Part shown: piece by piece, positions 17,094-63,281 of the stretch
How positions within the stretch are numbered: position 1 is the stretch's first letter
Layout: every line of letters starts with the position of its first letter
Notes under the pieces: model-generated
What the model saw: the letters and a program-made list of their open reading frames with translations, nothing else
Told to the model about the DNA's origin: nothing
Databases searched by the model: none
Assembly (NCBI GenBank): GCA_013816485.1
Contig: JACDEI010000024.1
Coordinates: forward strand, 1 to 64,000
DNA from: Planctomycetota bacterium
Lineage (GTDB): Bacteria > Planctomycetota > UBA11346
Length of the DNA stretch: 64,000 nt
Reading direction: 5' to 3'
Made by a program: the position numbers and the translations under genes

Positions 17094-17208
17094 AGCTACG
17101 AGCTACGAGCTACGAGCTACGAGCTACGAGTTCATCTCGACCCCCAGTGCTGACGTGCTCGTAGCTCGTAGCTCGTAGCTCGTAGCTCGTAGCTCGTAGC
17201 TCGTAGCT
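17094..17208. repeat. Inverted short-repeat array, unit AGCTACG (7 bp)
   Basis: Left arm of five perfect AGCTACG copies (17094-17130), 27-base spacer, right arm of seven reverse-complement copies (17158-17208). Arm copy number is unequal. It lies between the divergently transcribed NfeD protease gene and the phosphofructokinase gene. The same unit is used in the array at 30414-30488. Confidence 0.95.
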
Positions 17209-17285
17209 CCCTCCCCATGCCCATTTCCGCGTGCTTGCCGCGCGCGACGGGCTCCCCATAACCCGCCTCCCCACGAGGAATCCCC

Positions 17286-18539: not shown

Positions 18540-18722
18540 TCCGAGGGATCCGAGGGGCACGAAGGGTACGAAGGGTACGAAGGGTACGAAGGGTACGAAG
18601 GGTACGAGAGGTCGGAAGGGTTCCGATCCCTCACGGCCTTTTGGTTTCCGGACCCTTCGTACCCTTCGTACTTTTCGTACCCTTCGTACCGCTCGTACCG
18701 CTCGCACCTTTCGGACCTTTCT
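18540..18722. repeat. Inverted short-repeat array, unit GAAGGGTAC (9 bp)
   Basis: Left arm (about 18540-18622) carries six GAAGGGTAC-type units with decay at its outer end (GAGGGATCC, GAGGGGCAC). Right arm (18648-18722) carries the complement CCCTTCGTA with variants (TTTTCGTAC, GCTCGTACC). About 25 bases lie between. It fills most of the gap before the MFS transporter. No gene is visible in this gap. Confidence 0.92.
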
Positions 18723-56257: not shown

Positions 56258-56513
56258 CGTCCGAAGGGTCCGAGGGGTACGAGGGGTCCGAAGGGTCCGA
56301 GATGCTGGTGCAGTCATCACTCTAGGTGCTGTTCATGGCCGACCAAGTCGACCGTCTACTTCAGCGCATGCCGGATGCTGTCTCTGGACCTTTCGTACCT
56401 TTCGTACCTTTCGTACCTTTCGAACCTTTCGAACCTTTCGTACCCCTCGTACCCCTCGTACCCCTCGTACCTTTCGTACCCCTCGTACCCCTCGTACTTT
56501 CCAGACCGTGGCA
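56258..56513. repeat. Inverted short-repeat array, unit GGTACGAAA/GGTCCGAAG (9 bp)
   Basis: Short left arm 56258-56301 (about five 9-mers such as GAAGGGTCC and GAGGGGTAC), an 80-base spacer, and a long right arm 56385-56512 (about thirteen complement units, CCTTTCGTA and CCCCTCGTA). The outer right end reads TGCCACGGTCTGG on the minus strand, matching the end box of the arrays at 27802 and 57389. It fills the livF-hisA gap to within a few bases. Confidence 0.92.
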
Positions 56514-57394: not shown

Positions 57395-58420
57395 TCATCC
57401 GAGTTCCTCCTTGCCCAGGTACGCCTCGATCACCTGCGGATTCGCGCGGACCTCTGCCGGCGTGCCTTCGGCGATCTTGTTACCGTAATGTAGCACCGCG
57501 ATGCGGTCGCTGATACCCATCACCACCTTCATGTGGTGTTCGATCAGCACGACGGTGATGCCGCGGTCGCGGATGCGTTTGATCAGCTCCATCAGCTTGG
57601 TCGCCTCGGCCGGATTCATCCCGGCGGCCGGCTCGTCGAGCAGGAGCAGCGACGGACGCGTGGCGAGCGCGCGGGCGATCTCCAGCCGTCGCTGATGCCC
57701 ATACGGCAACGACCCGGCGGGCAGGTGGGCGCTGGTGCCAAGGCTGACGAATTCCAGTTCGCGCAGCGCGGTCTCTCTCGCGTCACGTTCCTCGCGGCGA
57801 TGGCGCGGCAGGCGCAGCGCGGCATCCCAGCCACGGGCGTGCAGGTGGCGATCCATGCCCACCAGCACGTTGTCGAGCGCGCTCAGATCGCGGAACAGCC
57901 GAATGTTCTGGAAGGTGCGCGCAACGCCGGCGCGTGCCACGGCGTCGGGTGTACAACGGCCCATGCGCCAGGCGTTCCACGCCGCACCGACGCCGATCGC
58001 CGCACCGATGGCGAGCGGCACCGTGGTCCAAGGGCCCTGCAGCGCGCTCGCGACGAGGGCGTTCCACGAGGTGCTCCAGGGGAACGGTTGGAGATGCGCA
58101 CTCTGGTTGATCGCGGCGTCCCACAGGGTGTTGGCGTTGATCGCCACGGCCGCGCCGAGCCCGGTGGCGAGTCCGACGAGGCCCCAGCGCACAACGTCAG
58201 CCGGTTCCGGCAGTGCCCGTACGGTACGTCCATCGATCCGCACGCACCCACTGCTCGGCTGGTAGAGTCCGGTGATGGCGTTGAACACCGAGGTCTTGCC
58301 CGCGCCATTGGGTCCGATGACGGCGAAGATCTGTCCGCGTTCGACGCTGATGCTGACATCGTTGACCGCCGTCAGGCCGCCGAAACGCAGGGTCAGGCGA
58401 TCGAGTTGGAGCAGTGCCAT
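57395..58420 (-). CDS. livG: Branched-chain amino acid ABC transporter ATPase LivG with internal insertion
   Basis: 341 residues. Walker A GPNGAGKTS, ARTFQNIRLF Q-loop, signature region LPYGHQRRLEIARAL, Walker B LLLLDEPAAGMNP and IEHHMKVVM are present, so it is a full LivG. Between the strand after Walker A and the Q-loop there is an insertion of about 95 residues holding two hydrophobic stretches (VVRWGLVGLATGLGAAVAINA and VPLAIGAAIGVGAAWNAW). Ordinary LivG proteins lack this. Start overlaps the livM stop (TAATG). Confidence 0.92.
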   Translation of the reverse strand: MALLQLDRLTLRFGGLTAVNDVSISVERGQIFAVIGPNGAGKTSVFNAITGLYQPSSGCVRIDGRTVRALPEPADVVRWGLVGLATGLGAAVAINANTLWDAAINQSAHLQPFPWSTSWNALVASALQGPWTTVPLAIGAAIGVGAAWNAWRMGRCTPDAVARAGVARTFQNIRLFRDLSALDNVLVGMDRHLHARGWDAALRLPRHRREERDARETALRELEFVSLGTSAHLPAGSLPYGHQRRLEIARALATRPSLLLLDEPAAGMNPAEATKLMELIKRIRDRGITVVLIEHHMKVVMGISDRIAVLHYGNKIAEGTPAEVRANPQVIEAYLGKEELG

Positions 58421-59517
58421 TAGTTGGCTCCCGCCGGCGCTTTGTCGCGGTCGCGGTCGCGGTCGCGGTAGCGCAGCTCGGCCGGGACCTCCTTGGCCGG
58501 CAGCAGGCCCTTGGGACGCAGCCGCATCATCAGGATCAGTGCGATGCCGTAGAGCATGAACTTCCAATTCCCAGGCGACGCCAACACGTTGTCGCCAGTC
58601 CAGCCATTGCGCGACATCATCTCGGTGAGCTTGGTCAACACGATGCTGTTGAAGCCGACCATGATACACGCGCCCAGCAGCACGCCGGTGATGTTGCCCA
58701 TGCCCCCGACGATGACGATGCACAGGATGATCACCGACTGTTGGAAGTCGTAGAATCCCGGCTCGATGCTGGTGCCTGCCAAGCTGGCGAACATCGCTCC
58801 GCCGGTAGCGCACAACGCCGATCCTAACGCGAAGGCGATCTGTTTGATCCATGGTGTTGGCAACCCCATCGACCGCGCAGCAAGTTCGTCCTCCCGCACC
58901 GCGACCCATGACCGCCCGAGTCGCGAATACCGCAGGTTGTGGCAGAGCCACACCACCGCGATCAGCAGCACTAGGTAGAGGTAGTACCACGGCACGTAAT
59001 TGCCGACCGAGAAGCTCACTCCCGGCATTGCTGGCACGGCCACTGGATTGAGTCCCTGGGTGCCCTTGGTCACCGCATCGAGATTCTTCAAGACATCCTG
59101 CACGATCTCACCAAACCCGAGCGTCACGATCGCCACGTAGTCCCCGCGCAGTCGCATCACCGGCAACGACAGCAGCAAACCCGCAATCCCGCCCATCGCC
59201 GTCGCCGCAAGCAGTCCGGGGAAAAACCCGATCTGGAACGGATAGATCGGACAGGTGAGGATCGCGAACGTGTAGGCCCCAATTGCCATGAACGCCGCGC
59301 TGCCCAAATTGAACAACCCAGTGAAGCCGGTGATGAGGTTCAACCCCAACCCGATGATGGCGTAGACCATGATCGCCGGCACCAGCGAGGCGAACTTCCA
59401 GGTAGTCGGCAGCAACAAGTCGATCGCGGGAAGAAGTGCGACCAGCAAAAAGGCAGACAACCTAGCCACAGAGGCCACAGAGGCCACAGAGGCCACAGAG
59501 AGCACAGAGGGGATCAT
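58420..59517 (-). CDS. livM: Branched-chain amino acid ABC transporter permease LivM
   Basis: 365 residues, membrane permease with the LivM pattern (MVYAIIGLGLNLITGFTGLFNLGSAAFMAIGAY, MRLRGDYVAIVTLGFGEIVQ, GLPTPWIKQIAFALGSALCATGGAMFASLAG, VIVGGMGNITGVLLGA). Two oddities. The first 18 residues (MIPSVLSVASVASVASVA) are encoded by the left arm of the array at 59446-59993, and the ATG overlaps the stop of the GxxExxY gene (ATGA). The C-terminal RDRDRDRD is made by a GTCGCG hexamer repeat. Confidence 0.92.
   Translation of the reverse strand: MIPSVLSVASVASVASVARLSAFLLVALLPAIDLLLPTTWKFASLVPAIMVYAIIGLGLNLITGFTGLFNLGSAAFMAIGAYTFAILTCPIYPFQIGFFPGLLAATAMGGIAGLLLSLPVMRLRGDYVAIVTLGFGEIVQDVLKNLDAVTKGTQGLNPVAVPAMPGVSFSVGNYVPWYYLYLVLLIAVVWLCHNLRYSRLGRSWVAVREDELAARSMGLPTPWIKQIAFALGSALCATGGAMFASLAGTSIEPGFYDFQQSVIILCIVIVGGMGNITGVLLGACIMVGFNSIVLTKLTEMMSRNGWTGDNVLASPGNWKFMLYGIALILMMRLRPKGLLPAKEVPAELRYRDRDRDRDKAPAGAN
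58444..58467. repeat. Hexamer GTCGCG x4 in the 3' end of livM
   Basis: Four perfect copies read on the minus strand as Arg-Asp dipeptides at the end of LivM. In-frame repeat, like the GCAGGT hexamers in btuF. Confidence 0.9.
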
Positions 59518-59993
59518 AGGATCACCCGTCGGATGCCGTGACGGAGCACCTTGACGTTGAAATTAAGCAGCAGCCCGAGCCTCAAGCCTGAAAGCCGGAG
59601 GTACGACAACAATTGTGCTTCATGGAGTGATTCGAGACGGTCTGTTGCCTTCAGTTCGCAGATCAACTGATGATCAACCAGGAGAGCAATGCGATAGGCA
59701 CTGGGAATTTCCATACCCTTGTAACGCAATGGCAGTGCAACTTGGCGTTGGACGTGGTGCTTGGCCAATTCCAATTCGTGAACCAGACACGCTTCGTAAG
59801 CGGATTCCAGCAAACCAGGCCCAAGATGTCTATGTACCTCAATGGCGCACCCGAGGATGCTCTCGGTGATGAGGTTGAGCTGTCGGGTCCCCTCTGTGGC
59901 CTCTGTGGCCTCTGTGGCCTCTGTGGCCTCTGTGGCCTCTGTGGCCTCTGTGGCCTCTGTGGCCTCTGTGGCCTCTGTGGCTAATGCCTTTTT
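59446..59993. repeat. Inverted CACAGAGGC-array cassette carrying a GxxExxY gene
   Basis: Left end AAAAAGGCAGACAACCTAG (59446) followed by five CCACAGAGG-type units (59466-59510). Right arm of ten perfect CCTCTGTGG units (59891-59980), then CTAATGCCTTTTT, the complement of AAAAAGGCATTAG. So both ends read AAAAAGGCA-n-TAG-(CCACAGAGG)n pointing inwards, like the terminal inverted repeats of a transposable element. Between the arms lies the GxxExxY gene. The cassette is inserted between livH and livM without breaking the operon. Confidence 0.8.
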
Positions 59994-62632: not shown

Positions 62633-62872
62633 ATGGCCGTCACGCGATGCGTCTGCTTTCAGAAGACCTTCTGCGATGTGCTCGCGGTCGCGCGCGAGAA
62701 CGGCTGGAGCACCGCGGCGGAAGTCAGTCTGAACATGCGCTGCGGTCTTGGCTGTGGCGGCTGCCGTCCGTACCTGCAGGCCATGCTCGACACCGGCGCG
62801 ACCTGTTTCGCCGTGCGCGTCGACGACCTGCCGCCCAAACCGTGCAAGCCGGAGCCGTGGGACATCCAATAA
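62633..62872 (+). CDS. BFD-like [2Fe-2S] protein
   Basis: 79 residues. Cys spacing CVCFQKTFCDVLAVARENGWSTAAEVSLNMRCGLGCGGCRPYLQAML matches the bacterioferritin-associated ferredoxin/NifU-central type domain: two Cys near the start and two in CGLGCGGC. Probably an iron-release or sensing ferredoxin. Divergent from livK, with no bacterioferritin gene in view. Confidence 0.8.
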   Translation: MAVTRCVCFQKTFCDVLAVARENGWSTAAEVSLNMRCGLGCGGCRPYLQAMLDTGATCFAVRVDDLPPKPCKPEPWDIQ

Positions 62873-62911
62873 CGTCCTGGTGCTGGTTTTCCTCGGAAGC
62901 GAAGAAAAACC

Positions 62912-63053
62912 AAAAGGCAGAAAATCTAGCCACAGAGCCCACAGAGCCCACAGAGAGCACAGAGCAAAGCCCTCTGTTTTCCCCTCTGTGGCCTCTGTGG
63001 CCTCTGTGGCCTCTGTGGCCTCAGTGGCCTCAGTGGCAAGCCGTCATGCCTTT
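62912..63053. repeat. Inverted CACAGAGGC array without a gene (empty form)
   Basis: Left end AAAAGGCAGAAAATCTAG then four CCACAGAGC-type units (62930-62965); only 16-20 bases of spacer; right arm of about seven CCTCTGTGG/CCTCAGTGG units to about 63037, then AAGCCGTCATGCCTTTCG, complement of a CGAAAGGCATG end. Same unit and similar outer boxes (AAAGGCA) as the GxxExxY cassette at 59446-59993. Confidence 0.88.
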
Positions 63054-63102
63054 CGCATCGACCTTAGCTTTACGCCATTGGGCGGTGCCCCCGACACCCC
63101 CC

Positions 63103-63170
63103 GAGTCCTTGAGAGCGGCGACTTCGCCAAACTTGACTCGGCAGGTCAAAATCGCCGCTCTCAAGGACTC
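63103..63170. repeat. 19-bp perfect inverted repeat
   Basis: Arms GAGTCCTTGAGAGCGGCGA (63103-63121) and its exact reverse complement (63152-63170) around a 30-base loop. It directly follows the array at 62912-63053 in a 409-base gap before the protease gene. No tandem unit is visible in it, so it may be a different repeat family. Confidence 0.88.
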
Positions 63171-63281
63171 TAGTGAGGCAGTCTCGAGCTGGTGCACCAC
63201 CCCCACGAAGTGGTCGACGGGCAGTTCCCGGGTATTAGCGTCGGCTTCCGTTGGGGCACCTACCCATCGGAGGGTTATGTC

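What the first reader, a model, noticed from the sequence alone, without database searches (positions are those of the whole stretch)
62912..63053. Gene-free sister of the GxxExxY cassette 3 kb away
It has the same 9-bp unit (CACAGAGGC/CACAGAGCC), the same outer AAAGGCA boxes and even a similar left flank (AAAAGGCAGA..TCTAGCCACAGAG against AAAAAGGCAGACAACCTAGCCACAGAG), but only a short spacer instead of a gene. This is the relation expected between a full element and its internally deleted, MITE-like derivative.
Basis: seen in the sequence. Interest (0 to 1): 0.7.

Follow-up and report, generated by a model that had tools for sequence, protein, structure and literature searches.

The report
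Jumping hairpin with inverted 9-bp arrays
The feature is a slightly truncated copy of a small non-coding jumping element: a hairpin of 9-bp repeats inside the ends of an IS4-type transposon, whose hairpin core also flanks a nuclease-like gene 3 kb away and across many bacterial phyla, where gene-free copies can arise by loss of that gene.

Summary
62912-63053 is the core of a larger element (62897-63079): inverted 9-bp arrays with AAGGCA boxes, inside a terminal inverted repeat (TIR, AATGGCGTAAAGCTAA) abutting a GGGN5CCC target. The genome holds 36 CACAGAG-array elements; only the window's GxxExxY cassette carries a gene (a second GxxExxY cassette uses a variant unit). Thirty-one two-ended elements with this TIR have matching 11-12 bp flanks far beyond shuffles; complete IS4-family transposons with such ends and duplications occur in relatives. 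The window copy is therefore an IS4-type MITE, left end lost. The same shell carries other arrays, and another shell with 8-bp duplications carries the same array. The cassette 3 kb away lacks the shell, so it is not the simple parent. Partly supported. New variant of a known kind (minisatellite-bearing MITE); the GxxExxY array cassette was not described in the papers searched.

The parts
62897..63079 (-). Gene-free array element, type A IS4 shell, reverse of the commoner drawing; left TIR and TSD lost
   Evidence: Left homology to other type A copies begins at AAGCGAAGAAAAACC; right TIR intact
62912..62919 (+). AAAAGGCA outer box (left)
   Evidence: conserved at sister ends
62929..62964 (+). 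Left 9-bp array (CACAGAG units), including one AGCACAGAG variant
62965..62982 (.). Spacer, no gene; 18-20 bp in most sister copies
62983..63037 (-). Right inverted 9-bp array (CCTCTGTGG / CCTCAGTGG)
63047..63053 (-). TGCCTTT outer box (right; complement of AAAGGCA)
63064..63079 (-). Right TIR, AATGGCGTAAAGCTAA on the minus strand
   Evidence: one mismatch to the searched pattern
63080..63090 (.). GGGCGGTGCCC, target site matching the GGGN5CCC seen at sister copies
63102..63172 (.). Second palindrome GAGTCCTTGAGAGCGGCGA..TCGCCGCTCTCAAGGACTC next to the target (approximate ends); same neighbour at other MITE copies with either core
62633..62872 (+). BFD-like [2Fe-2S] protein gene upstream; same-genus G001 has no such array element directly after it
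59448..59992 (-). GxxExxY cassette between livM and livH, bounded by AAGGCA boxes, no IS4 shell
59465..59510 (+). Cassette left array
59514..59890 (-). GxxExxY gene (TIGR04256 / PF13366); conserved Asp replaced by Ala
59891..59981 (-). Cassette right array, 10 units
58420..59517 (-). livM-type permease whose 5' codons are interrupted by the cassette; its new ATG overlaps the GxxExxY stop (ATGA)

Best explanation
The feature is a left-truncated copy of an IS4-family MITE. Its interior is a gene-free core of two inverted 9-bp tandem arrays that can fold into a hairpin. Shown: intact sisters have 16-18 bp TIRs (AATGGCG...) and 11-12 bp duplications of GGGN5CCC-like targets; complete IS4-family transposons with such ends and duplications exist in the same bacterial family; the same core also sits in other contexts, including around a GxxExxY gene. 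Inferred: an IS4-type transposase acting in trans cut and pasted this element next to the bfd-like gene, and its left end was then lost. Inferred: the core descends from an array cassette of the GxxExxY kind by loss of the gene, as seen directly in a relative, and was picked up into transposon ends more than once.
For: Element family and boundaries. TSDs: 31 automatically delimited elements score 191 against -100 (sd 19, maximum -31) in 5000 flank shuffles; a hand-delimited set agrees. Complete transposons: (L229 has GGCGTCTCGCCC on both sides; L228 11 of 12). The transposase remnant matches an IS4-family model (below the curated cut-off, as expected for a fragment) and holds the Y(2)R(3)E(6)K motif; published IS4-subgroup hallmarks are ends -AATR and 10-13 bp repeats (PMC2266710). 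Core homology. Internal deletions in G034. Arrays around GxxExxY in many phyla. The GxxExxY cassette site is empty in a same-genus relative.
Against: No intact IS4-family transposase was found in this genome, only two remnants; the assembly is 87% complete. The window copy has only one TIR, so its own TSD cannot be checked, and no orthologous empty site was recoverable for it. Gene-free copies here keep no gene remnant, so descent from a gene-bearing core rests on analogy with G034 and on matched polarity.
Confidence: 0.82

Rival explanations
1. The copy is a direct internally deleted derivative of the neighbouring GxxExxY cassette: the gene was lost and the empty cassette moved 3 kb.
For: Shared boxes, array unit, polarity and left flank; internal deletions of such cassettes are real in G034.
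Against: The cassette lacks the IS4-type shell present here and in sister copies. Sisters across the genome match this copy over its whole length, the cassette only over core and boxes. No gene remnant.
Confidence: 0.07
2. The arrays are a self-mobile element (GxxExxY as its nuclease) that inserts into palindromes and transposons; the IS4 and other shells are merely its targets, and the core moves on its own.
For: The same core lies in unrelated shells and shell-less in operons; a conserved gene-plus-inverted-array layout crosses phyla; an empty site exists at livH/livM.
Against: No target duplication of the core itself was found; most copies in this genome carry shells, and two-ended shells have TSDs, so those moved as whole MITEs.
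Confidence: 0.3
3. Ordinary minisatellite expansion in a transcription terminator or attenuator, with no mobility.
For: Strong hairpin just after a stop codon; arrays vary in length between copies.
Against: TIRs, target duplications, dozens of copies at unrelated loci and nested insertions.
Confidence: 0.03

Closest known systems
BrickBuilt MITE of Porphyromonas gingivalis (PMC4596501)
   Same: A minisatellite carried inside a MITE with IS-like TIRs, about 20 copies, intergenic, no transposase remnant.
   Different: BrickBuilt is one 23-nt direct array; here two inverted 9-bp arrays face each other, several array types share one shell, one array type occurs in several shells, and the arrays also flank a nuclease-like gene.
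IS4 family, subgroup IS4, and its non-autonomous derivatives (PMC2266710)
   Same: Ends -AATR, 10-13 bp direct repeats, YREK transposase motif in the transposase of this genome's remnant and its relatives.
   Different: The interior is not a deleted transposase gene but an array core unrelated to the transposon.
GxxExxY protein family (TIGR04256 / PF13366, PD-(D/E)XK superfamily)
   Same: The neighbour cassette's gene belongs to it; array-flanked members found in many phyla.
   Different: No published account of the inverted arrays, or of gene-free derivatives, was found in the open papers searched.
REP/BIME palindromes with RAYT transposases (recalled, not tested)
   Same: A non-coding palindrome family paired with a small gene, and many gene-free copies.
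   Different: Different gene family, tandem 8-10 bp units, and movement here by an IS4-type transposase with long target duplications.

Membership tests
MITE of the IS4 family | TIRs matching those of an autonomous element | tested here: met
   AATGGCG... ends in MITEs and in complete IS4-type elements L228-L230; one end intact in the window copy
MITE of the IS4 family | Target duplication of about 10-13 bp | tested here: met
   31 sister elements, score 191 vs -100 sd 19; not checkable at the window copy itself, whose left end is lost
MITE of the IS4 family | Short, no transposase gene, multicopy | tested here: met
   122-202 bp, 31 two-ended copies
MITE of the IS4 family | Autonomous partner with YREK DDE transposase in the same genome | tested here: inconclusive
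   Only remnants L069 and L070 here; complete copies in relatives
MITE of the IS4 family | Mobilised in trans by the transposase | not testable with these tools
   Needs a transposition assay
GxxExxY array cassette | Inverted short arrays with shared boxes | tested here: met
GxxExxY array cassette | GxxExxY gene between the arrays | tested here: not met
   19-bp spacer, no remnant
BrickBuilt | 23-nt direct minisatellite with leader and tail | tested here: not met
   9-bp inverted arrays
Known structured RNA (Rfam) | Match at the gathering score | tested here: not met
   Only sub-threshold hairpin matches
REP/RAYT | Y1-type transposase partner | not tested
   Not searched

The most novel reading that the evidence does not exclude
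GxxExxY genes with inverted 8-10 bp arrays (units like CRCRRAG) are an undescribed, cross-phylum class of mobile cassette whose PD-(D/E)XK-like protein acts on the arrays, and gene-free derivatives spread by hitching inside unrelated carriers (IS4 ends, an 8-bp-TSD transposon, attC-like ends).
Probability: 0.4. Interest if true: 0.8.

Novelty: new variant of a known kind. Interest (0 to 1): 0.6.

Why it matters
It turns an odd repeat into a testable system: a hairpin core shared between a nuclease-gene cassette and at least two unrelated transposon shells, with a visible series from full cassette to gene-deleted derivative in one relative. If the nuclease acts on the arrays, this would explain a common but unexplained type of tandem array near GxxExxY genes in environmental bacteria, and how minisatellites get into MITEs.

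Tried and rejected
Rfam gave only sub-threshold hairpin matches, taken as chance. Plasmid search: no match. Empty site for the window copy itself: the sequence after the bfd-like gene differs in all relatives read, so the insertion cannot be dated. Target duplication for the shell-less livH/livM and sucB/lpd cassettes: none seen by eye. Integron reading of the G034 copies: attC-like ends, but no integron integrase above the cut-off, left open. Gene remnants in this genome's gene-free spacers: none. Literature searches for the array sequences and for the gene family found nothing on the arrays; only open-licence papers are held, so absence is weak evidence. The name ISL3 for the 8-bp-TSD shell came from memory and was not tested, so it is not claimed.

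Full report
OBSERVATION. AAAAGGCA occurs three times in the window, all at these two elements. Across 37 array elements of this genome, an exact AAGGCA box is found within 26 nt of 41 of 74 array ends; shuffled ends give a mean of 1.5 and never more than 6. Part of that conservation reflects shared descent within subfamilies, but the box also recurs in copies with different outer ends. The single strand folds better than all 200 shuffles (z -4.85).

WHAT IT IS. The genome (5.2 Mb, 101 contigs) holds 143 matches to CCACAGAGNCCACAGAG and none to the reversed control. I delimited 36 two-armed CACAGAG elements, of which only the window's 59.4-60.0 kb cassette carries a gene; a second GxxExxY cassette has a CGCAGAG unit. 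Most gene-free copies have an 18-20 bp spacer.

THE SHELL. Many copies have outer ends of the form AATGGCGTAAAGCCAAGC...GCTTGGCTTTACGCCATT or a variant. Outside these ends lie 11-12 bp direct repeats, often GGGN5CCC-like, for example GGGCGAAGCCC on both sides of L066. In 31 automatically delimited elements the left and right flanks match with a total score of 191; shuffled pairings average -100 with sd 19 and never exceed -31. The genome has two remnants of DDE transposases; L070 ends CGCCATT|GGGCGTATCCC, and L069 on the other strand reads CCC|AATGCCG. Relatives have complete copies: L229 begins AATGGCGTTCAGTTAG and ends ATGCCATT between two copies of GGCGTCTCGCCC, and L228 is similar. The transposase has the Y(2)R(3)E(6)K motif, as read in YGERWGIETIYREMK, and its best NCBIfam match is IS4 family. 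Published hallmarks of the IS4 subgroup are ends -AATR and 10-13 bp repeats (PMC2266710). The shell is therefore an IS4-family MITE. The window copy keeps one TIR (63064-63079) next to GGGCGGTGCCC (63080-63090), and its left end is cut at 62897.

MIX AND MATCH. The same IS4-type shell carries arrays of at least four unit types: CACAGAG, CACGAAG, AACGGAG and ACCAGAG. Conversely the CACAGAG core occurs in a different shell, GGTTCTTCGGCGAG...CTCGCCGAAGAACC, with 8-bp duplications; in L040 this element sits inside a type C element between two copies of GTTTTTCT. The core also occurs with no recognisable shell tight between genes, as in L042 and L057.

RELATION TO THE GxxExxY CASSETTE. The cassette at 59448-59992 shares boxes, arrays and polarity with the gene-free element: variant unit AGAGCACAGAG in the left arm and inner TCCCCTCTGTG on the right in both. 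It has no IS4-type ends. It sits in the first codons of livM; a same-genus relative has livH and livM joined without it (L137). The gene's stop codon overlaps a new livM start. Its protein has Ala where about 30 homologues have Asp in RxD, so it is probably not an active nuclease; this is an inference.

ARE GENE-FREE COPIES DELETED CASSETTES? In this genome there is no direct trace: no gene remnant in the spacers. In G034, another family of the same phylum, there is. Using the full cassette L316 as reference, about twenty other loci keep both ends (mostly 83-99% identity) and lack part of the gene. The junction 184/189-409 recurs at L073, L081, L312, L305, L306 and L308, and other junctions (228-448, 106-329) recur too; the flanks printed for five of those six differ. 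Internally deleted derivatives that spread are thus real for this kind of cassette. Full cassettes and gene-free sisters also coexist in G059, G061, G066 and G067, reached through loci of a Phycisphaerae, a Phycisphaerales, an unclassified and a Synechococcales genome. Of 33 GxxExxY loci, 23 have at least two inverted CRCNRAG units on both sides, against 2 of 467 control placements. The motif was chosen after seeing on the same loci, so that contrast is descriptive, but the gap is large.

MECHANISM. Most likely an IS4-type transposase supplied in trans moved the MITE; the array hairpin is cargo whose origin is a GxxExxY-type array cassette that lost its gene. The IS4 step rests on sequence signatures; the origin of the core is by analogy. 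Why arrays keep being captured inside transposon ends is not known. The rival that the core moves by itself remains open at about 0.3.

NOVELTY. A minisatellite inside a MITE is known (BrickBuilt, PMC4596501). Paired inverted arrays, exchange of cores between shells and the link to a nuclease-like gene were not found in the papers searched. New variant of a known kind.

Noticed in passing
L189, L190, L197, L204, L214 (contig ends of the window's genome): Five contigs break in one nearly identical sequence directly after CCACGAAG inside CACGAAG arrays of the IS4-type MITE; it encodes LIACARKLLIRLNTIAAKAL, recalling an IS110-type C-terminus (family not tested). A repeated insertion sequence may target these arrays.
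   Followed up: partly
window 63102-63172 and L046, L055, L062, L191, L202, L211, L214: A second palindromic repeat (GAGTCCTTGAGAGCGGCGA...) lies next to the MITE target site at several copies, with either core type: a preferred insertion site.
   Followed up: partly
L316, L306, L308 and others in G034: The array cassettes of G034 start with GTTGGGC and end in attC-like sequence GCCCAACAAGCCGATGCAGCGGACGGCC; no integron integrase above cut-off was found.
   Followed up: partly
window 59514-59517: GxxExxY stop and new livM start overlap as ATGA; the 9-bp unit is open in all six frames, so the cassette sits in livM's first codons without ending the operon.
   Followed up: partly
L136 (G003), livH/livM junction: A different inverted array (unit near GTGCGGA), gene-free, sits at the same operon junction in another species of the genus.
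   Followed up: no
window 17094-17209, 18551-18721, 56259-56501: Other inverted tandem arrays with 7-9 bp units (AGCTACG, CGAAGGGTA, ACCTTTCGT), not examined.
   Followed up: no
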